DNA from: Modicisalibacter xianhensis
Lineage (GTDB): Bacteria > Pseudomonadota > Gammaproteobacteria > Pseudomonadales > Halomonadaceae
DNA length: 64,000 bases
NCBI RefSeq assembly: GCF_900113605.1
Contig: NZ_FOPY01000001.1
Location: forward strand, 7,669 to 71,668
Direction: 5' to 3'
Below the pieces are notes generated by a model. The model had not been told where the DNA came from and made no database searches. It saw only the letters and a program-made list of their open reading frames with translations. Position numbers and translations under genes: made by a program. Positions 47,788 to 57,935 of the stretch are shown here, one piece after another; the first letter of the stretch is position 1, and the number at the start of each line of letters is the position of its first letter.

Positions 47788-48180
47788 TCAGTGGGAGCGA
47801 CACATCTCGGCGGGATGCCGCAGCTGGGCGAGCAGGTAGGCCTTGAGTTCGGTATCGACGCCCATCTCGTCGAGTGCGGTACGCATGCACAACAACCACG
47901 CATCCCGCTCCTCGGGGCCGATCGACAGGTGGCGATGCGCGGCAGGAATGGCAATAGGCCCGAAACGTTCGCGATAGCGGCTAGGCCCGCCCATCCAGCC
48001 GATCAGGAACGTCGCCAACTTGTCTTGCGACAGGGCCAGATCGGCGGGATGCAATGCCAGGATGCCCTGGGCCTCGGGCAGGCGCTGCATGGCGGCATAG
48101 AAGCGTTCGGCCAGCTCGCGTACGGCAGCCTCACCACCCAGTGCCTGCAACGTGCTGTCACCCACGCCATAGATGGTCAT
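47788..48180 (-). CDS. Group II truncated haemoglobin
   Basis: A 130-residue 2-on-2 globin. Family hallmarks are Tyr28 in FYAAM (B10 position), KLATFLIGWMGGPSRYRERFG in the middle, the proximal haem His84 in AAHRHLSIG and Trp95 in ERDAWLLCM (G8 Trp, diagnostic of group II). Such globins bind O2 or NO and protect against oxidative or nitrosative stress. Its AUG overlaps the jetD stop by one base (TAATG), making it the fifth and last gene of the Wadjet-like operon by translational coupling. Whether it contributes to defence is unknown. The open frame continues 14 codons upstream inside jetD, but the coupled AUG is preferred. Confidence 0.9.
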   Translation of the reverse strand: MTIYGVGDSTLQALGGEAAVRELAERFYAAMQRLPEAQGILALHPADLALSQDKLATFLIGWMGGPSRYRERFGPIAIPAAHRHLSIGPEERDAWLLCMRTALDEMGVDTELKAYLLAQLRHPAEMCRSH

Positions 48181-49283
48181 TAATGCGCCTCCTCGTACGG
48201 GTCGGTTATTCGTGCCAGCCACTCCTCGGCCAGCGACTCGTCGAGCGCCTTGTCGCCCAATTCAGCCACCCGCGTATCGTCGAGCGCCTCTTGATCGAGA
48301 CCTCGCATCCAACTGCCGGCCTGGCGCTGGCCGGCCTTGCCGGTCAGCCCATGCAGCGGATGGCCGGCGTCGTTCTCCAGGCGTTCGATCATCGGCGTGT
48401 AGAGCGCCGATAGCTGGATTCCCGGCACGCTCTGGCGCAGACGCAGGAAGATACGCAGCCCCTCGGGATCGAGATCGCCCCAGAACGTGACCTCAGGCAG
48501 GGCGAGCAACTCGGACAACGTGCATGACGAGGTGCGCTCGCCGATCAGCCGGACCTGCTCAGGTGCCCTTAGCGCTTCGCCCAGCGACAGGCCATAGCCG
48601 AAACTGCAGACCAGTGCCCAGCGCTCGTCGAGACAGACCCGGCAGGCCTGCTCGAAGCTCTGCGGATTTTCGATCAACAGCAATCCCTGGGGCTCGGCGG
48701 GGACCGACGCCAGCACCCAGGCCGATGTCCCGCGAAAGGCTGTGGTATCGATGCCGAAGCTGCGCACCAGTTCGCGGGGCAGCGCCATGAGCAGCTTGCT
48801 GCTACCCAGCAGGTACCGGGCACTGGCCTCGAAAGCGCTGTAGGCATAGGCGTGGGGCAGGTCGGCGGCCATGGCACGCAGGCCCTCGGCAAGGCGCTGC
48901 TGGTCGGTTACGGACCAATCCTGCAGCACGCCGTCCAGCGCATGCCGCCAGACCGCCGCCTGGGCAGCCTCCAGCCCCAGTGAGTCGTCGAGTTCGGCGA
49001 ATTCCGACTCGAGGCGATGACGCAACGCTTCCGACAGGGTGACCTGCACGTTGAGCGTCTGACGGGCGGACACCGGAGAGACGGTCTCGATTACCCCCGC
49101 CCCGGCCAGTTCGCGCAGCGCCTCCCAGCCATCAAGCTCGGTCGCGCAGGCGCGGTCGCGCTTGAGACGCCGCACCAGGCTGGCACTGCGCCAGCCCTTG
49201 TTGCCCTGCTTGCGGTAGGCAAGTGTCCAGTCGCCTTCCAACCAAAGCTGGACCGCCTCGGCACGTTCGCTCAAGTGACTCAT
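48180..49283 (-). CDS. jetD: Wadjet JetD / MksG-type Toprim nuclease subunit
   Basis: A 367-residue protein with a helical N-terminal region (DUF3322-like, about 1-190) and a C-terminal Toprim/DUF2220 domain. The acidic Toprim residues are visible: Glu205 in LLLIENPQSF, and Asp270 and Asp272 in TFWGDLDPEGLRIFLRLR. In Wadjet systems JetD cleaves circular plasmid DNA after loop extrusion by the SMC complex. It overlaps jetC by 4 nt upstream and the globin gene by 1 nt downstream. Family assignment rests on these motifs and on the gene order. Confidence 0.85.
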   Translation of the reverse strand: MSHLSERAEAVQLWLEGDWTLAYRKQGNKGWRSASLVRRLKRDRACATELDGWEALRELAGAGVIETVSPVSARQTLNVQVTLSEALRHRLESEFAELDDSLGLEAAQAAVWRHALDGVLQDWSVTDQQRLAEGLRAMAADLPHAYAYSAFEASARYLLGSSKLLMALPRELVRSFGIDTTAFRGTSAWVLASVPAEPQGLLLIENPQSFEQACRVCLDERWALVCSFGYGLSLGEALRAPEQVRLIGERTSSCTLSELLALPEVTFWGDLDPEGLRIFLRLRQSVPGIQLSALYTPMIERLENDAGHPLHGLTGKAGQRQAGSWMRGLDQEALDDTRVAELGDKALDESLAEEWLARITDPYEEAH

Positions 49284-52200
49284 GACGTCGGCTCCGTGAC
49301 GTGGATTCCGAACAGACTGGCTTCCCCGACGCTACGTGCCAAGTCCTGTGGATCGACGACGCGGCCATCGCGCACGATGACGTGCCCACCCTGCCCCTGG
49401 GCCCCGCCAATCACGCTGCCAACCAGGTAAGTGGGAAAGATCGTCGCGTCGTTCTCGTAGTTCGGGTTATGAATCAGCCCGATCATCTGGAAGCGGCCCC
49501 GGGTATTGCGCAGCGACTCCAGCGAATCCTGGATCAAGCGGCGATGCGATAGCTTCGAAAACAACCCATCGAGCAGGATCACGCTCTCGCGACCGGCCCG
49601 GGCGCGGCGCTTCTGATGCCCCGGCAACTCGCGCAGCTCGCGCTCGATGGCGAATTCCGAAAGCTTGACCAGCCACATCAGCGAGACCGCCTCGCGCTGT
49701 CCTTCCGACATATCCTCGTTGAGCGAGAACAGGCGACCGTGCGGGCGAATGGCGTCGTGCTTGAGGCGGATCGACACGTCACGGAACAGGCCGCGATAGA
49801 TTCGCCGCCGGATCTGTCGGCCGAGCTCCTCGTCGCGCCGGCGCTGGTCGCTGGCCGCCATGCCGCCCTCCTGCTGCTGACGACGCCGCAAGGCCGCCTG
49901 ATGCTCGTCGATGTCGGCCAGCAACTGCTGGATCAACTCGCGCACGGCCTCGTCACCGATCAGTGACGCCTTGACCTCGAAGTAGGCGCCGCCTTCGCCA
50001 CTGCGACGCGCCACCCGGCGCAGGATGTCCAGGTTGCCAGCCGCATCGGTGATGATCGAGCCCAGGCGTTCGACCAGCGTGCCCTCGATGTGCTCGCGCG
50101 AGGCATGCAGCCGGGCGACCCGCTCACGGTGCTCGTCGAGCTGGCCGTTGAGCTGGGCATACAGCGCCTGAAGGTCGTCGAGCGCCGCTGGCTGGACGCC
50201 TTCCAGCGTGGCCAGCCGGGCCCGTTCGGTGTCGTTGAACAGACGGCTGTCGCGCGCGTCGTGCAAGGCAGCATCCAGCGCCTGGACCCGCTGCTCGACC
50301 TCGCGCGCCTGACGGTCGCGATTGCGTGATCGCTCGCCCAGGTTGAGCCCTTCCAGCGCATCGACCAGGGTCTGCTGGCAGCTTTCCAATGCCGCGAGGT
50401 CGACCTCGTCGCTCTCATTCTCGTTGCCCGTATCGCTGCCCGCCAGGCGACGCCAATCGTCGAGGGCGTCGTCCAGGCGCTCGGCCTGGGGATGATCGAC
50501 AGGCCAACGGCTGGCTCCCGCCGGGTCGTCGAGTGCCATGATGCGACGCGACCAGTCCGCAGGCAGTTCGCGTACCACCGCCAGCCAGGCAATGCCCAAC
50601 TGGTCGGTCAAAACCATTGCCTGCTGGTTGGCTTCGAGACGCCCTTCCACGACCTGCTGCTCGTGAGCCTTGCGCTTGCGCGCATCGCGGGTCTCGCCGA
50701 GTTCACGCTTGAGCCGGGCAATTTCGCGCTCCAGCTTCTGGCTGCCGCCCTTCTCATCACGCACATCGAGATAGGCACGAATACGCGCGAAATCGAAGTC
50801 AGCACGTCGAATGGCCGTGGCCAGGGTCTGCTCCAAGTCGGCCTGCACCGTCTCGGCACAGGCCATGAAGGCCTCGCCGCCCTCGTCCTCGAAGGCAGCG
50901 AGTCGCTTGAGCCGGTCGCGTTCGCCGTCGGCGAACAGCTCACGCAGCCGGGCCGCCAGATCATCGCGACGCAAGCGCAGCGATGCGACCTGCTCGGCGG
51001 CGTCACCCTCGCGTTCGGCAACGATGGCTGCCTGCTCACGCAGCGCTTCCAGTCGTGACTCCAACGCCGACAGGCGCTCGACGCCACCGGCATCGGCGAA
51101 CTTCTCCGCAGCCAGCCAGGTCGGGCCATGGGCCTCCAATGCCTGCTCGGCCTCATGCACCTTCGGCGTCAGCTCGGCCAGCCGGGTTTCGGCCTCGAGT
51201 AGATCTTCTGCCGCTGCTTCCAGCGCCCGGTCGCCCCCTTCGAGCAGGTAACGCTGGTAATCGTCGATCGCGGCCAGGGCGGCATCGGTCAGGCGCGGAG
51301 CCAATCGTTCGCGCTGTTCGGCCAGGCGTGCCTGTTCGGCTTGCAGCGACTCCAGGGCATCATCGACCTTTTCGTCAGCGGCCACCTGGGCCCGAAGCGC
51401 CAGGGCGAAACGCTCGCCATGCGGATCGAGGCGCTCGATCTCCTCGCCAAGCGCGACCCGCCGTTGGCGTTCGATGTCCAGTCGCTGCTGGGTCTCCTCG
51501 CGCAGGGCCGTCAGGAACTGCGGATCGAGCGCAGCCTTGACCGCCAGGGTTTCCTTGCCCTGCACCGCACCCAGCGGGGGCTGGCCTTGCGACAGGCAGG
51601 CAGCGAGCCGGCCGGCTTCGAGTACCGGCACGCCCAGGCCCCGCTCGATCAACAAGCCAGCCGCGTCACCGGCGGCCGCCTCGCCCTCGATGACCGGGGC
51701 AAAAAGCTGCCCGGCGGCTTGCGCCAGCCAGTCGCGCCGCGAGACTTCGTCGGCCTCGAACCTCGTCAGCGCCTCGTGCAGTGGCACGAAGGCGATACCC
51801 GCCTCGTCGAGCAGGCGCTGCGCCTCGCTTTCGGCGACCTGGCGGGCCAGCGGATCACCGGCCAGGCTCTCCAGGTAACGCTTGCGGGCCTGGATCTTCT
51901 CGTCCAGACCTTCCGCCTCGCGCAGCAGCCGCGGATAGCGGGACTTGGCATCCTTGAGCCACTGAGCCGGCGACTGCTCGCTGAGCTCAGCGAAGCGCAG
52001 CCAGGCCTGGTGCAGCTCGCGCAGGCGCTGCTCCTCCCGGGCCAGGCGATGGCTTTCATCGTCCAGTGCCCGGGATTCGCGATAGAGGCAGTCACGCAGA
52101 TGAACCGGCTCGTCGTCACCGTGAATGTCCGCGTAGTGCCGCGCTGCCTCGGCCAGTGGCGTCAGGCGGGCACGCAGCGCTCTGGCATCGTCCTGACGCT

Positions 52201-54187
52201 GACGTTGCCCACGCAGCGCCTGCTGCCACTCGGAAAGCTCGGTCTTGCGCCGCGACCAGAATTCGTGAACGTCTGCCTCCGGCCAGCCCTCGATGAAGGC
52301 CTGCCAGGCCTCGCGCCCCTGACGCAGCGGCCCCTGCTCACCCTCCAAACGCTGGCGCTCTCCGTCCAGGCGATGACGCTCGTCGCGCGCTGCCGCCTGC
52401 CGGGCATCGGCGTCGCCAAGTTCGCTCTCGATCCGCTCGCGTTCCTCATCGAGGGCTTCCTGCTGCTCGATCTTGAGCGCCAGCAGTTCACCCGGCGAGG
52501 TCCGGGGGTGGGCGGCCTTGAACTCGGCATGCCACTGCGCGGGCTGGCGCAGTTCACCGACCCGGCCGAGGTGCTCGTTCAGTGCGCGACGCGTCTCGTC
52601 GGCCTGGGCCACGGCCGCCTCGCGAGTGGCTTCGGGCGCTTCCAGTTCGTCTTCACTGAACAGCCCCTGTGCGAGCGCCTGGGTATAGAAGCTCTGGTTG
52701 TCAGTGAACTCGCGCTGACGTGATTCGAGCTGTTCGCGCTCACCGTCGAGACGCTCCCACTGGACGTCCAGCCGGTTGATGTCGGTCTTGAGTTCCTTGA
52801 CGTATTCGCGATCGGCGATGACTTCCTCGCGGAAGCGGTTGCCATCGAGCCCCTCGAACGCTTCCGCAGCGTCCTCCAGGCGTGACAGCGCCCGATAGCG
52901 CGCCGAGTCGTCGGCAAAGACGTGGCTGTCCTCGAGCCAGTCGCGGGCTGAGGCAAACGTGACATGATGCACATCGCGAGCCTGTGGCCACGCTGACTCG
53001 GACAGGTGCACCAGGCGACGGTGCGCGTCGACCCGCGCGCCGCGCTCGGACAGTGCCTGGCGCACGGCACGCTCGGCCTGGCCGGTCAGCCGTGCCAGCA
53101 GCCAGGTGGACACACGGGGCCGCTCGGTATCGCCGAGCGCCCAGGCAAAGCCGGCAACCAAGTCGGCCTCGCCCGACTCATCGTCGGGGGCATCGGGGCG
53201 TCGCGGCAGTCCCGGCAGACCGAGTAGCGCCTGCCCACCCAACAGCCGTTCGCTGGCCGCCAGTCCCTCGTCGAGATCGGCGAGCTGGCGGCGCGCCTCG
53301 AGCAACGCCTCGCCCTGGGTATTGAGATCGGCCAGCCGCGTCACCTTGTCCTCGGCACGCCGCTGGTCGTTCTCGGCTTCGCTCAGGCGCTGGCGCAGTT
53401 CGGTGACCTTGGTTCCCGAGTTGAGGATCACGTCCTCGATCAGGTCCTCGCCCTCGTCGGTCTCGCCACGGGTCGCCCCGGAAAGAATCTGCGGTGCCAG
53501 CACCTCGAAGAAGAACGCCTGATCGGCTTTCTCGCCGGCGCGCGGCTTGATGGCGTTGAATATCTGGCTTTTGTCGGCGCCGCCCTCCTTCTGGAAGGCG
53601 GCCAACTGGGCCAGTTCGCGCCGCGAGATATGCGCACCGACGGCATCCAGCCACTCCTCGCGATTGGCGCTGCGCGTCACCTTGTGCTGGCGCATGGCCG
53701 TCTGTACGTCGCTGTTGGCGTACAGCGCCAGCTTGGCATCGCGAGTGACGTGATAGACCGGCACGTCCTCGAGCCGGCCGGCATAGTGGTAGAAGGACAG
53801 CCCGCTACCGTCGCTGTAGCCGTACATGCCGAACACGAACGTCTCGCCGGCCACTTCCTCGCCGGCCGCGGCGAGCATGTCGCTCTGGCCGCCACTCTCA
53901 CCGGCGCGGAACTCGACGCGCAGGTGCGACCAGCTGCGTCCCTGGCCCGCCACGCTGGACGGCGAGCACTTGCGCCGGGTACGTGCCAGCAGGGTGCGAT
54001 CGCGCGACAGCAGGCCGATCAGCGCCTCGGCGAGGGTGGTCTTGCCGAAGCCGTTCTCCATGCTGATGGCACTGGACTGGCCGCGCAGATCAAGCAGCAG
54101 GTGACGCATCTTGGCGTCCCAGGGCGACGCGATATCGCCGTGCTTGTTGAGCAGGTTGGCGACTTCGATGCGATTGATGACACTCAT
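49280..54187 (-). CDS. jetC: Wadjet JetC / MksB-like SMC ATPase, atypical
   Basis: A 1,635-residue SMC-like protein, longer than E. coli MukB (about 1,486). The N-terminal ATPase lobe ends in a P-loop-like MENGFGKTT (residues 43-51, Lys49) in which the first canonical Gly is Met. Most of the protein from about residue 260 to 1380 is Glu/Gln/Arg/Ala-rich heptad sequence, i.e. two long coiled-coil arms around a hinge region. The C-terminal lobe has the signature-like MSEGQREAVSLMWL (about 1493-1506) and a Walker B-like VILLDGLF (about 1536-1543), where the usual catalytic Glu after Asp is Gly. The D-loop region reads SKLSHRRL. Start and stop overlap jetB and jetD by 4 nt. It should drive ATP-dependent loop extrusion, but the motif changes leave its ATPase cycle uncertain. 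Confidence 0.85.
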   Translation of the reverse strand: MSVINRIEVANLLNKHGDIASPWDAKMRHLLLDLRGQSSAISMENGFGKTTLAEALIGLLSRDRTLLARTRRKCSPSSVAGQGRSWSHLRVEFRAGESGGQSDMLAAAGEEVAGETFVFGMYGYSDGSGLSFYHYAGRLEDVPVYHVTRDAKLALYANSDVQTAMRQHKVTRSANREEWLDAVGAHISRRELAQLAAFQKEGGADKSQIFNAIKPRAGEKADQAFFFEVLAPQILSGATRGETDEGEDLIEDVILNSGTKVTELRQRLSEAENDQRRAEDKVTRLADLNTQGEALLEARRQLADLDEGLAASERLLGGQALLGLPGLPRRPDAPDDESGEADLVAGFAWALGDTERPRVSTWLLARLTGQAERAVRQALSERGARVDAHRRLVHLSESAWPQARDVHHVTFASARDWLEDSHVFADDSARYRALSRLEDAAEAFEGLDGNRFREEVIADREYVKELKTDINRLDVQWERLDGEREQLESRQREFTDNQSFYTQALAQGLFSEDELEAPEATREAAVAQADETRRALNEHLGRVGELRQPAQWHAEFKAAHPRTSPGELLALKIEQQEALDEERERIESELGDADARQAAARDERHRLDGERQRLEGEQGPLRQGREAWQAFIEGWPEADVHEFWSRRKTELSEWQQALRGQRQRQDDARALRARLTPLAEAARHYADIHGDDEPVHLRDCLYRESRALDDESHRLAREEQRLRELHQAWLRFAELSEQSPAQWLKDAKSRYPRLLREAEGLDEKIQARKRYLESLAGDPLARQVAESEAQRLLDEAGIAFVPLHEALTRFEADEVSRRDWLAQAAGQLFAPVIEGEAAAGDAAGLLIERGLGVPVLEAGRLAACLSQGQPPLGAVQGKETLAVKAALDPQFLTALREETQQRLDIERQRRVALGEEIERLDPHGERFALALRAQVAADEKVDDALESLQAEQARLAEQRERLAPRLTDAALAAIDDYQRYLLEGGDRALEAAAEDLLEAETRLAELTPKVHEAEQALEAHGPTWLAAEKFADAGGVERLSALESRLEALREQAAIVAEREGDAAEQVASLRLRRDDLAARLRELFADGERDRLKRLAAFEDEGGEAFMACAETVQADLEQTLATAIRRADFDFARIRAYLDVRDEKGGSQKLEREIARLKRELGETRDARKRKAHEQQVVEGRLEANQQAMVLTDQLGIAWLAVVRELPADWSRRIMALDDPAGASRWPVDHPQAERLDDALDDWRRLAGSDTGNENESDEVDLAALESCQQTLVDALEGLNLGERSRNRDRQAREVEQRVQALDAALHDARDSRLFNDTERARLATLEGVQPAALDDLQALYAQLNGQLDEHRERVARLHASREHIEGTLVERLGSIITDAAGNLDILRRVARRSGEGGAYFEVKASLIGDEAVRELIQQLLADIDEHQAALRRRQQQEGGMAASDQRRRDEELGRQIRRRIYRGLFRDVSIRLKHDAIRPHGRLFSLNEDMSEGQREAVSLMWLVKLSEFAIERELRELPGHQKRRARAGRESVILLDGLFSKLSHRRLIQDSLESLRNTRGRFQMIGLIHNPNYENDATIFPTYLVGSVIGGAQGQGGHVIVRDGRVVDPQDLARSVGEASLFGIHVTEPTS

Positions 54188-55110
54188 GCCCGCTCCTCCG
54201 CTGCACGCTCGTCGACCGACGCTGCGTCACTATCTCCATCCATGCCAAGCAAGTCGTCCTGTGCCTCGTCCGCCTCGGGCGCGATACCGGACGTATCCCT
54301 GTCTTCCTCTGCCACGGAAACCGACTCATCGTCGACTTCCTGGGCTGACGGTCGTGGTTCACCCGAGAGCAGGTCGACCAGGTGCGACAGGTGGTGGACG
54401 CCCACCTGCTCGGCCTCCAGCGCACCCAGCAACGTCTGCTGCCAGATCTCGCTCTCGGCACCGTCACGTGCCTCGCGCACCGTCTCGAGCTGCCCGGCCC
54501 GTACCTGCAGGTCGATGAACGCCTTGACGCGGCGGGCAATGTCCTCGCCCCGCTCCTCGAGCAACGCACGGCTGGTTTCGGGCACGCCCTCGCCCTGGGC
54601 GCGCAGGGTCTCGAGCTGCTCGCGCAGCAGGCCGATCAGTTCGGACGTGGCGAACGTGGCTTCCTGATAGCGACTGACGTCGGACAGGGCACGATTGAGA
54701 CGGGTATAGAGCAAGGTCTGCATCAGCAGCCACAGCTGCAGATACCACTGGGCGAGTTCGGCGCGGCTCTCCTGGCGCAGGCGCAGGGCGTCGAACACCG
54801 GCTCGCGGGTATACAGCGGCGGCTGTTCCAGCTCCGGGTCGGGCAGCAACGCGTAGAGCCGCGAGCCGGGAGCGATGCCGGGATAGTCACCGGACTCGAA
54901 CACCTTGAGGCGCAGCCCCTGCCCGGCCAGAAAGTCACGCAATGCCTCGCGTTCGGTATCCAGCGCATCGTCGATCAGTGCGCAGACGTCGCGCTCGGCC
55001 AACTGGCCTTCGCGTGCCGCACGACGCTTGCGACCGTTGCCGGGCTGACGCTCGGCAGTGCGATAGCGCAACAGGTAGGCGACGACCTCGCCCATCTCGG
55101 TCATGTTCAT
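54184..55110 (-). CDS. jetB: Wadjet JetB / MksE-like subunit
   Basis: A 308-residue helical protein in the MksE/JetB position between the kleisin and SMC genes. An N-terminal winged-helix-like part includes MGEVVAYLLRYRTAERQPGNGRK (highly basic) and CALIDDALDTEREALRDFLAGQGLRLKVFESGDYPG. A helical middle has LAQWYLQLWLLMQTLLYTRLNRAL. The last 55 residues or so are a strongly acidic, probably disordered tail (Glu/Asp/Ser/Ala-rich), which I would not expect in standard MksE. The call depends mainly on operon order and size; sequence motifs are weak. It overlaps both neighbours by 4 nt. Confidence 0.72.
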   Translation of the reverse strand: MNMTEMGEVVAYLLRYRTAERQPGNGRKRRAAREGQLAERDVCALIDDALDTEREALRDFLAGQGLRLKVFESGDYPGIAPGSRLYALLPDPELEQPPLYTREPVFDALRLRQESRAELAQWYLQLWLLMQTLLYTRLNRALSDVSRYQEATFATSELIGLLREQLETLRAQGEGVPETSRALLEERGEDIARRVKAFIDLQVRAGQLETVREARDGAESEIWQQTLLGALEAEQVGVHHLSHLVDLLSGEPRPSAQEVDDESVSVAEEDRDTSGIAPEADEAQDDLLGMDGDSDAASVDERAAEERA

Positions 55111-56555
55111 AGGGTTTCGTCCTGCTCGGCGACGCGCTGCGCCACCCTTGATGGTTCGTTACGCGGGGATAGACCGGCCTCGTCGCCCTGAAAGAACCCC
55201 AGCGATGGGGTGACCGGCCCGTCGATACGCCGGCCGTCCGCCAGGGTGACCACGAAGGGCCGGGCCTCGACGCCCACCGACAGGCGGCAGTCCACGAGCT
55301 GGGTGTCAACGAAGGTATTAAGTAGCTGGGCCAGGCAATCCTGCGCCTCGAAGTGATGCCAGCCCTCTTCCAGCGCCTCGGGCAACGACAACGGCGCTTT
55401 TTCCAGACGCTGACGCAACGCCGGGCCACGCGCTTCGAGATAGCGCGCCAGCAACGGGTCCTCTGGCCGGGCATCGGCCTGCTCGTCAAAGACCAGCGCG
55501 GCGTCGCTCTTCTCGGCCCGTCGCGTCTCGAGCAGCGGCACCAGGGTCGAGTTTCGTGGCATGGCCACCTTGAGCCCGAACGGCATCATGCGCGCGACCA
55601 GCGTATCGCGCAGCGCCTCCGGCAAGGGCGCGTGCAGCACCCGCCGCGCCAGGTCGGCGAAGTCGACCACGCCCATCGACTGGATGCGTCCCTCGGCAAT
55701 GTCCGAGAGCAGTTCCGAGAGCCGGCGCGACAGGTTCTCGATGGCGTTGAGCACGCGTCCGATCGCGCCGGAGAGCATGCGCAGGTCCCACTCCTCATCC
55801 TGGGACTCACGCCAGGCCTCGAAACGCTGCATGGCATCCGGCGTGGCCAGTTGCGAGCGGGCGCTGAGCAGCGTGTTCTGGATCGTCGACAGGGCGTTGT
55901 GATAATGCCGCTCGTTGTCGAGAAACGCGGCCAGCTTGCCCTCGCGCGTCGGGTTCTCGCGAATCCGGCGCAATTCCTGGGTCAGCGCGCGGATCGCCAT
56001 CAGTATCTGATTGGTGATGTCGGGAATACGCGCGAAGTCGCTACGTGCCAGCGCGGCCAGCACCTTGGCGGCGTCATATTCGGAATACAGCAGGTCCTCG
56101 ACCTGGCTGGCCAGGGTCACCGCCTGCCGACCGCTGGGCGTCAGGCGCACCTGGCCGGTCTGGCCCTGCTTCTCGATCAGCGCGGTGCGCTTGGTACTGG
56201 CCATGCCCCGCGCTTCATTACTCTCCAGCGTGGGCGGCGCACTGCGGAAATGAATCTCGCTGGGCGTGGCCAGCAGGTTGACGACGAAGCTCAGGTCATC
56301 GGCGGGCAGGCCGGGATAATGCTCGCGCAAATGCATCAGGCAGCGCGTCTGCGAAACGAAGGCGCTGTTGGTGGCGAAATCGACGTCGAGTAGAAAATCG
56401 AGCAGCAGGCAGCCGAGATCCAGCCAGTAGCCGTCACGCAGTCCGCGACGCTGCTCCTGGCTGACCTGCACGAACGCCGAACCCGGCTCATGGGCGCTGT
56501 CATGCAGGTCTATGAGTCGCGTGGTGGCGACGAGAAGCTTGCTCCAGGCGGTCAT
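55107..56555 (-). CDS. jetA: Wadjet JetA / MksF-like kleisin subunit
   Basis: A 482-residue protein, first of the operon. Its size, position and helical composition match MksF/JetA kleisins, which bridge the SMC heads and bind the JetB dimer. An N-terminal winged-helix-like region includes GYWLDLGCLLLDFLLDVDFATNSAFVSQTR. The middle is helical (ALTQELRRIRENPTREGKLAAFLDNERHYHNALSTIQNTL), and a C-terminal beta-rich portion contains LVDCRLSVGVEARPFVVTLADGRRIDGPVTPSLG. The AUG overlaps none upstream; about 70 bp separate it from the next gene. The identification is by architecture and context. Confidence 0.75.
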   Translation of the reverse strand: MTAWSKLLVATTRLIDLHDSAHEPGSAFVQVSQEQRRGLRDGYWLDLGCLLLDFLLDVDFATNSAFVSQTRCLMHLREHYPGLPADDLSFVVNLLATPSEIHFRSAPPTLESNEARGMASTKRTALIEKQGQTGQVRLTPSGRQAVTLASQVEDLLYSEYDAAKVLAALARSDFARIPDITNQILMAIRALTQELRRIRENPTREGKLAAFLDNERHYHNALSTIQNTLLSARSQLATPDAMQRFEAWRESQDEEWDLRMLSGAIGRVLNAIENLSRRLSELLSDIAEGRIQSMGVVDFADLARRVLHAPLPEALRDTLVARMMPFGLKVAMPRNSTLVPLLETRRAEKSDAALVFDEQADARPEDPLLARYLEARGPALRQRLEKAPLSLPEALEEGWHHFEAQDCLAQLLNTFVDTQLVDCRLSVGVEARPFVVTLADGRRIDGPVTPSLGFFQGDEAGLSPRNEPSRVAQRVAEQDETL

Positions 56556-57348: not shown

Positions 57349-57935
57349 TCATGTCCGGCCCCGGCTTTGCCCTGCACCCAGCCCACCGGCAATCAGGTGC
57401 GCCGTGCGCAGCGGCTCGGGAATCGTGCCGTTGACGGCAGTGCTTCGCAGCACTGCCTCGGCCTCGCGCAGGCTGAGCCCCACGCGCTGCACGTGCACGC
57501 CGGCCAGGGGTTCCATCGGCCCGAGGCGTTCGACGCGCGCCCACTTGGCACCACCGCCGGGAATCCGCTCGAGCAGGGCCCGCCGCATCGCCGCCGGTCG
57601 CGGCGCATGGCGGGACACCACCAGCACCGGCACGCCCAGCGCAGCATGTAACCGAGGCACGTCGACGACATTGAAGCCCGCCAACGCCACGCCCTGGAGC
57701 ATGACGAGCTGCAGGTGCGCGCCGAACTTGCTGTCGCGCACCAGTTCGATGAGCACCCGGGTCGCGTTCACCCCGTCACGCTGCACCTTGCCCGAGACGA
57801 CGCCTTCCAGTCGCAGTCCCGAATAGATCGTGCCGACGATGGAAACGTCGCCCCGATGATCGCGGGCGAAGGGAAAATCATCGAAGCCGACGATATGCGA
57901 GAAGGTGCGAGGATGAGCTTCCCTGCTTGAACGGC

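What the first reader, a model, noticed from the sequence alone, without database searches (positions are those of the whole stretch)
47788..56555. Wadjet/Mks-type SMC plasmid-defence operon, jetABCD, with all junctions overlapping
Four consecutive genes have the order, sizes and signatures of kleisin (JetA), JetB, SMC ATPase (JetC) and Toprim nuclease (JetD: Glu205, Asp270, Asp272). Junctions are 4-nt overlaps. Established knowledge: JetABCD/MksFEBG extrudes and cleaves circular plasmids. A chromosomal, intact copy would restrict plasmid uptake by this strain. The JetA and JetB calls rest on context more than motif, so the subtype may be new.
Basis: partly seen in the sequence, partly recalled or inferred. 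Interest (0 to 1): 0.75.

Follow-up and report, generated by a model that had tools for sequence, protein, structure and literature searches.

The report
Divergent Wadjet operon with optional nuclease
A four-gene machine that probably reels in and cuts plasmids, found at a chromosomal site in salt-loving bacteria, belongs to a distant branch of the known Wadjet group in which the cutting part is often missing and a key ATPase residue is replaced, which makes it a natural test of how a DNA-folding machine and a plasmid-defence system relate.

Summary
In detail: jetA 55107-56555, jetB 54184-55110, jetC 49280-54187, jetD 48180-49283 (minus strand), three ATGA overlaps, JetD E205/D270/D272. The cited start, 47788, takes in a globin gene. 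JetD is a Wadjet nuclease by profile; the JetA model best matches a Wadjet-II chain; JetB is a likely KITE protein (weak). JetA, JetB and JetC match no Pfam, NCBIfam or PADLOC Wadjet model: a divergent Wadjet-group complex, not shown to be type I, II or III. Two oddities. (1) JetABC occurs in 69 of 201 Halomonadaceae genomes, this JetD in 20 of those 69; parsimony needs 12 JetD changes on the core tree, and D-less cores are under purifying selection. (2) 72 of 72 JetC read have DG where 8 of 8 type I references have catalytic DE. Most likely: a condensin-like core with a detachable plasmid-cutting subunit. Plasmid restriction was not testable. JetD-less Wadjet relatives are known in general; this within-family switching was not in what I could read.

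The parts
55107..56555 (-). jetA, putative kleisin, 482 aa
   Evidence: ORF; AlphaFold2 model pLDDT 64.6; best Foldseek match 9qe0_E (Wadjet-II JetABC dimer, 495 residues, taken as JetA from its size) E 1.2e-6 prob 1.00 but TM 0.14; then chains of MukBEF 7nz2 and MukE-MukF 3rpu
54184..55110 (-). jetB, likely KITE protein, 308 aa
   Evidence: ORF; model pLDDT 66.5; 7 of the top 10 Foldseek matches are chains of MukBEF/MukEF, Nse1-3-4 or Smc5/6 structures, none with E below 0.016
49280..54187 (-). jetC, SMC-like ATPase, 1635 aa
   Evidence: ORF; Walker A, signature and Walker B-like motifs; no Pfam or NCBIfam family; one weak PADLOC hit, LmuB E 1.3e-6
54035..54058 (-). JetC Walker A, ENGFGKTT (residues 44-51)
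   Evidence: position; same motif in 68 of 69 Halomonadaceae JetC pieces, the miss being the C-terminal piece of L104; ENGFGRTT in H. beimenensis L014
49697..49708 (-). JetC ABC signature SEGQ (residues 1494-1497)
   Evidence: aligned
49547..49576 (-). JetC Walker B region LLDGLFSKLS (residues 1538-1547): Gly in place of the catalytic Glu
48180..49283 (-). jetD, Toprim nuclease, 367 aa
   Evidence: ORF; Pfam JetD_C 31.5 bits, cut-off 22; PADLOC JetD1 E 1.2e-17
48468..48476 (-). JetD D270-L271-D272, Toprim acidic pair (GDLDPEG)
   Evidence: invariant in the 10 rows of A1; G-D-x-D in 20 of 20 JetD loci
48669..48671 (-). JetD E205, Toprim glutamate (IENPQSF)
   Evidence: invariant in the 10 rows of A1; EN motif by pattern in 19 of 20 JetD loci, not in L086
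47788..48180 (-). globin gene, neighbour at the site, not part of the complex
   Evidence: Bac_globin 96.3 bits; next to the hydrolase in the jet-less stretch of G003

Best explanation
This is a JetABCD/MksBEFG-like complex of a divergent Wadjet-group branch. JetC dimers with kleisin JetA and KITE JetB form an ATP-driven DNA loop extruder; [quoted passage not shown] In this branch JetABC is a core that also serves the cell without JetD, probably in chromosome organisation beside Smc-ScpAB, and JetD is an attachable effector that is lost and probably regained at the same place in the operon. Shown here: gene content, motifs, JetD family, JetA structural resemblance, presence/absence pattern, purifying selection on JetABC. 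Inferred: loop extrusion, plasmid cleavage, chromosome role of the D-less form.
For: JetD profile matches and Toprim residues invariant in 10 aligned rows. JetA model: the three best PDB matches are chains of Wadjet-II JetABC, MukBEF and MukE-MukF structures. JetB model: 7 of the top 10 matches are chains of MukBEF/MukEF, Nse1-3-4 or Smc5/6 structures. JetB profile in 69 of 201 Halomonadaceae genomes; JetD strong in 20 of 201, the same 20 genomes in which it follows jetC. 12 parsimony changes of JetD on the JetABC tree of 68 loci; 7 disjoint clades with local support of 0.96 or more hold both states. In 7 of 12 D+/D-less pairs compared, downstream homology resumes 20-30 nt after the jetC stop in the D-less locus against 1123-1774 nt in the D+ one. 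A broken JetD C-terminal remnant in 1 of 49 D-less loci, L084. jetC omega 0.053-0.137 in 12 D-less pairs, 0.077-0.168 in 6 D+ pairs; jetD 0.20-0.36 in the same 6. ABCD operons outside the family: L159, L160, L015. ScpA in 201 of 201 genomes. MksBEF without JetD contributes to chromosome organisation in P. aeruginosa (PMC10586767, passages read).
Against: JetC lacks the catalytic Walker B glutamate whose mutation (E1042Q) impairs the C. glutamicum MksB ATPase (PMC10123090, passages), so ATP-driven extrusion is not assured; H. beimenensis L014 has also lost the Walker A lysine (ENGFGRTT). No sequence match of JetA, JetB or JetC to Wadjet models. hhalign against a type I set is unconvincing (JetC probability 35.9 over 64 columns, JetD 19.6, JetA and JetB below 1), but it also misses the JetD relation that PADLOC shows, so it is a weak test. 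Both structure models are of middling confidence and the JetA superposition is poor overall (TM 0.14). The 12 changes equal the lowest of 500 label shuffles (mean 17.5), so JetD is clustered to a degree. The JetABC tree is not a species tree; transfer of whole operons could blur the count. The JetD EN motif was not found by pattern in L086.
Confidence: 0.65

Rival explanations
1. It is simply an undersampled member of Wadjet type II or III, whose profile models are too narrow to see it; the DG Walker B may be usual there. (Compatible with most of the best explanation, but less novel.)
For: Best JetA fold match is a chain of the Wadjet-II structure. JetC is long (1635 aa); one JetC2 and one JetC3 model have 1355 and 1457 positions, and types II/III are described as having longer coiled coils (PMC12647877, passages).
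Against: No PADLOC JetA/B/C of any type matches; the JetD matches best a JetD1 model, with JetD3 weaker. I obtained no type II or III JetC to read its Walker B (searches gave none usable).
Confidence: 0.4
2. JetABC is primarily a housekeeping condensin, and JetD in this family is a topoisomerase-like helper for the chromosome rather than an anti-plasmid nuclease.
For: 49 of 69 loci lack JetD and the 12 D-less pairs measured are under purifying selection; chromosomal site with an empty version in G003; MksG is described as a topoisomerase VI A homologue (PMC10123090, passages).
Against: JetD evolves faster than the core (omega 0.20-0.36) and comes and goes between close relatives, which I recall as usual for defence genes; three D-less genomes (G029, G456, G463) also hold a type I JetB.
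Confidence: 0.2
3. The complex no longer hydrolyses ATP and is a decaying or regulatory remnant.
For: Glycine in place of the catalytic glutamate in 72 of 72 JetC read; Walker A lysine lost and jetD frame changed in L014; jetC in pieces in L104; remnants in L016 and pPUV-6.
Against: Omega 0.053-0.168 in the 23 jetC pairs measured; Walker A kept in 68 of 69 pieces and jetC open over its length in 68 of 69 loci.
Confidence: 0.1

Closest known systems
Wadjet type II (Neobacillus vireti JetABCD, PDB 9qe0)
   Same: JetA model's best PDB match is a chain of this structure; long JetC; Wadjet gene set A, B, C, D.
   Different: No PADLOC JetA/B/C match; the one JetC2 model searched in genomes has no match in the window's own. 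Walker B of type II not read here.
Wadjet type I / MksBEFG (E. coli GF4-3, P. aeruginosa PA14, C. glutamicum)
   Same: Four-gene order and Toprim JetD with EN and GDLD motifs; best JetD profile is JetD1; weak motif match to solved MksG (E 0.13).
   Different: JetC 1635 aa against 1123-1228 aa in 8 references; DE in 8 of 8 references against DG here; hhalign finds no convincing relation of A, B or C, with the caveat that it also misses JetD.
MksBEF of P. aeruginosa and MukBEF (nuclease-free Wadjet-group condensins)
   Same: Kleisin-KITE-SMC core that can exist without JetD (PMC10586767 passages; PMC7617805 passages).
   Different: Here D+ and D-less forms occur within one family, at one operon position, in close relatives.

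Membership tests
Wadjet group (JetABCD/MksBEFG) | Operon of kleisin, KITE, SMC ATPase and Toprim nuclease in the order A-B-C-D | tested here: met
   subunit identities of A and B rest on fold matches
Wadjet group (JetABCD/MksBEFG) | JetD/MksG family nuclease with Toprim acidic residues | tested here: met
   Pfam JetD_C 31.5 bits over cut-off 22; PADLOC JetD1 E 1.2e-17; E205, D270, D272 invariant in the 10 rows of A1
Wadjet group (JetABCD/MksBEFG) | JetA is a kleisin | tested here: met
   Foldseek best three: chains of Wadjet-II JetABC E 1.2e-6, MukBEF 1.6e-3, MukE-MukF 3.4e-3 (chain identity inferred from chain length); model pLDDT 64.6 and TM 0.14, so local rather than global agreement
Wadjet group (JetABCD/MksBEFG) | JetB is a KITE (tandem winged-helix) protein | tested here: inconclusive
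   chains of SMC complexes hold 7 of the top 10 places but best E is 0.016
Wadjet group (JetABCD/MksBEFG) | SMC ATPase head with catalytic Walker B glutamate | tested here: not met
   Walker A and signature present; Walker B is DG in 72 of 72 JetC read against DE in 8 of 8 type I references
Wadjet group (JetABCD/MksBEFG) | Restricts circular plasmids | not testable with these tools
   needs an experiment
Wadjet type I | JetA, JetB, JetC match type I models (DUF3375/DUF5716, DUF4194, JetC1) | tested here: not met
   no match at E 0.01
Wadjet types II and III | JetA/B/C match type II or III PADLOC models | tested here: not met
   no match at E 0.01 in PADLOC; the models may be too narrow

The most novel reading that the evidence does not exclude
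A branch of Wadjet-group complexes in which JetABC is a chromosomal condensin that switches into and out of plasmid defence by repeated loss and gain of JetD at a fixed slot, and whose ATPase works without the canonical catalytic glutamate (another invariant residue such as E1511, E1515 or H1573, or a non-hydrolytic clamp).
Probability: 0.3. Interest if true: 0.75.

Novelty: new variant of a known kind. Interest (0 to 1): 0.5.

Why it matters
How chromosome-folding SMC machines and plasmid-cutting Wadjet systems turned into one another is open. Here close relatives with the same core differ by the nuclease, which makes the question testable with paired strains. A whole SMC family without the catalytic glutamate would also challenge what is needed for loop extrusion. 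Practically, the PADLOC library sees only JetD as Wadjet here, so D-less cores would be missed by it.

Tried and rejected
Profile searches of JetA, JetB and JetC against Pfam, NCBIfam, PADLOC and PDB sequences led nowhere. NCBIfam was run on five window proteins only and gave no family, JetD and the globin included. Attempts to get type II and III JetC references by guessing PADLOC accessions: PDLC00550 (JetC2) gave weak hits in 6 of 200 genomes (23.5-27.8 bits), PDLC00585 (JetC3) none in 200 and none in the 14 controls, so no statement on their Walker B. Mobile-element idea: tblastn of JetB in plasmids none, of JetD in phages none, of JetD in plasmids 5 records (2 P. aeruginosa, 3 Variovorax; the Variovorax SRS16 one is a type I operon at 29% identity); the Endozoicomonas JetD found the same 2 P. 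aeruginosa records; a JetC scan of viral contigs with two short patterns found no relative. The operon looks chromosomal. Replacement effector in D-less loci: five downstream ORFs scanned in Pfam gave two thiamine-binding proteins and three without a family, others are globins; no shared substitute was seen, but not every D-less neighbour was scanned. Residues that separate D+ from D-less cores: best is a JetA C-terminal gap, phi 0.55; nothing diagnostic. hhalign against type I proteins is a weak test because it also failed on JetD. I first took the gene at 57349 for a phosphoribosyltransferase; Pfam says Endonuclease dU.

Rows dropped or limited: L104 was left out of the tree (jetC in pieces; 68 of 69 used). 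L118 has only 205 nt after jetC, so its local D absence is not testable; the whole-genome search found no JetD in that genome (G017). L012 was left out of the JetA alignment A2 (jetA cut by the contig start) and L013 and L016 out of the JetC alignment A4. Pairs for dN/dS and for junctions were hand-picked as near neighbours on the tree; one pair (L091/L094) has jetC dS 1.38. The presence counts rest on one sample of 201 genomes drawn by the tool.
Full report
What is there. On the minus strand, jetA (55107-56555), jetB (54184-55110), jetC (49280-54187) and jetD (48180-49283) encode 482, 308, 1635 and 367 aa. Each junction is an ATGA overlap. The neighbours are ordinary: MarR regulator and HlyD-type protein on one side, alpha/beta hydrolase, Endonuclease dU family protein and a sigma-54-type regulator on the other.

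Is it Wadjet? JetD: yes by profile (Pfam JetD_C 31.5 bits over a cut-off of 22; PADLOC JetD1 E 1.2e-17), with E205, D270 and D272 invariant in 10 aligned rows. It is the only JetD_C match in its genome. JetA: no family match, but the AlphaFold2 model (pLDDT 64.6) has as its best PDB matches a 495-residue chain of the Neobacillus vireti Wadjet-II JetABC dimer (E 1.2e-6, probability 1.00, TM 0.14), a MukBEF chain and a MukE-MukF chain; that these are the kleisin chains is inferred from their lengths. JetB: the model (pLDDT 66.5) has chains of MukBEF/MukEF, Nse1-3-4 or Smc5/6 structures in 7 of its top 10 places, none with E below 0.016; suggestive only. JetC: ENGFGKTT, SEGQ and LLDGLFSKLS in SMC-like places, but no Pfam or NCBIfam family; its one PADLOC hit is LmuB, E 1.3e-6. 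Other members fare the same: PADLOC 0 families for 9 JetA and for 9 JetB, Pfam only two chance-level matches, one member each, for 8 JetC. hhalign against type I proteins from other genomes (4 of the 8 JetC confirmed as JetC1 in PADLOC) is not convincing: JetC probability 35.9 over 64 columns, JetD 19.6, JetA and JetB below 1. Since JetD fails too, where PADLOC sees the relation, this control is weak. The four chains form a divergent Wadjet-group complex, not placed in type I, II or III.

The ATPase oddity. In 69 of 69 Halomonadaceae JetC the Walker B stretch reads V-I-x-L-D-G-L-F-S-K-L-S-H; two from another family of the same order (L159, L160) and one from Endozoicomonas (L015) have DG too: 72 of 72 read. 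The pattern found no such site in the pPUV-6 remnant (L017). In 8 of 8 type I JetC the same place reads DE (7, L018). The distance from signature to Walker B Asp is 46-47 residues in the four JetC measured here (window, L159, L160, L015) against 36-38 in 7 type I references. In C. glutamicum the E1042Q change impairs the MksB ATPase (PMC10123090, passages read). I could not read types II and III, so how unusual DG is within Wadjet remains open. H. beimenensis (L014) also has arginine for the Walker A lysine.

The optional nuclease. A JetB profile finds the family in 69 of 201 Halomonadaceae genomes, in 13 of 24 genera, and in 4 of 398 genomes of the phylum, of which 3 are of this family and one is a weak match with stops inside. 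A JetC profile finds 5 of 244 genomes of the order, 2 of them outside the family. All 69 loci hold A, B and C; 20 have JetD after jetC, 49 do not. A whole-genome search with the JetD profile gives 20 strong matches in a family sample of the same size, the same 20 genomes, plus 4 weak ones of 19.6-22.4 bits; one of the weak ones, in G463, lies about 6 kb from a type I JetB. On a tree of concatenated A, B and C (68 loci) JetD needs 12 changes, against a mean of 17.5 and a minimum of 12 in 500 shuffles; if it was ancestral and never regained, 27 losses are needed. Seven disjoint clades with support of 0.96 or more contain both states, so at least seven changes do not hang on weak nodes; other mixed nodes have support as low as 0.25. 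The JetD tree follows the core tree partly (patristic r 0.82 over 190 pairs, 8 of 17 splits shared), so both inheritance and exchange are likely. Of 12 close pairs compared, 7 show a clean difference: L098 against L099 and L100, L082 and L085 against L086, and L065 against L067 resume homology 20-29 nt after the jetC stop in the D-less form and 1123-1141 nt after it in the D+ form, and L075 and L077 against L071 27-30 nt against 1774 nt, lacking more than JetD. L101 against L096 resumes after 471 against 1179 nt. L084 against L079 has lost an internal part. Three pairs (L056/L053, L068/L074, L070/L072) share nothing downstream in the stretch compared. L084 keeps a broken C-terminal piece of JetD in two frames, the only one found among 49 D-less loci within 2.5 kb at E 0.01.

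The core is kept without the nuclease. jetC omega is 0.053-0.137 in 12 D-less pairs, 0.077-0.168 in 6 D+ pairs and 0.067-0.116 in 5 mixed pairs; jetD omega is 0.20-0.36 in the 6 D+ pairs. Smc-ScpAB is likely there as well: ScpA in 201 of 201 genomes. A type I JetB (DUF4194) passes its cut-off in 10 of 131 genomes; three of them, G029, G456 and G463, also carry a D-less core of this family. The site is a discrete insertion point in at least one case: G003 has Endonuclease dU, hydrolase, globin and MarR genes in line without a jet match in the 13 kb searched, with about 0.1 kb between the hydrolase and globin matches; in two other jet-less genomes, G002 and G013, the hydrolase is there but no globin was found in the stretch taken.

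Mechanism. Best reading: JetABC extrudes DNA loops; with JetD bound, total extrusion of a small circle triggers cleavage, as proposed for Wadjet (PMC10586767, passages); without JetD the core folds the chromosome like MksBEF of P. aeruginosa. Extrusion, cleavage and the chromosome role are inferred. The missing glutamate is the main result against a simple transfer of the known ATPase cycle.

Relation to print. That Wadjet-group members such as MukBEF and several others lack JetD is known, and PMC7617805 surveyed 254,733 bacterial genomes with an optional MksG (passages and section 52 read); its Data S1, which may contain this family, was not opened (no look-ups in supplements are allowed). 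PMC10586767 already suggests that P. [quoted passage not shown] Searches: MksBEF with Halomonas 0 papers; Wadjet with Halomonas 1, on marine biofilm viruses, seen as a listing only; six phrases for a lacking JetD or MksG 1, the review just named; Halomonadaceae with condensin 0. None, as far as seen, treats this family or within-family JetD switching; the library holds open-licence papers only.

Noticed in passing
In L013 and L014, which I read, the upstream copies are ~60-aa ORFs that stop after a Walker A without its lysine and overlap the next copy by ATGA.
   Followed up: partly
L014 5133-11140 (H. beimenensis): The full jetC copy reads ENGFGRTT (Walker A lysine to arginine) and jetD changes frame near its C-terminal end: decay or sequencing error.
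   Followed up: no
L017 9914-12798 (plasmid pPUV-6, P. aeruginosa): Two open pieces matching the C-terminal part of JetC (E 1.4e-5 and 3.6e-51) followed by a JetD of this family (E 8.7e-63), next to a Tn3-family transposase: a decayed member on a plasmid typed conjugative.
   Followed up: partly
L016 7572-10669 (Parachitinimonas caeni): A jetA piece and a jetD piece with an ORF between them that looks by eye like a transposase (not searched), and no jetB or jetC found: another remnant.
   Followed up: no
window 47788-48180: Globin gene coupled to jetD by TAATG; the ORF cluster that includes it is found downstream in 20 of 69 loci and sits next to jetC in some D-less ones such as L058 and L059.
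   Followed up: partly
L104 4331-9330: jetC is split into three reading-frame pieces in one single-contig genome of 93% completeness, decay or assembly error.
   Followed up: no
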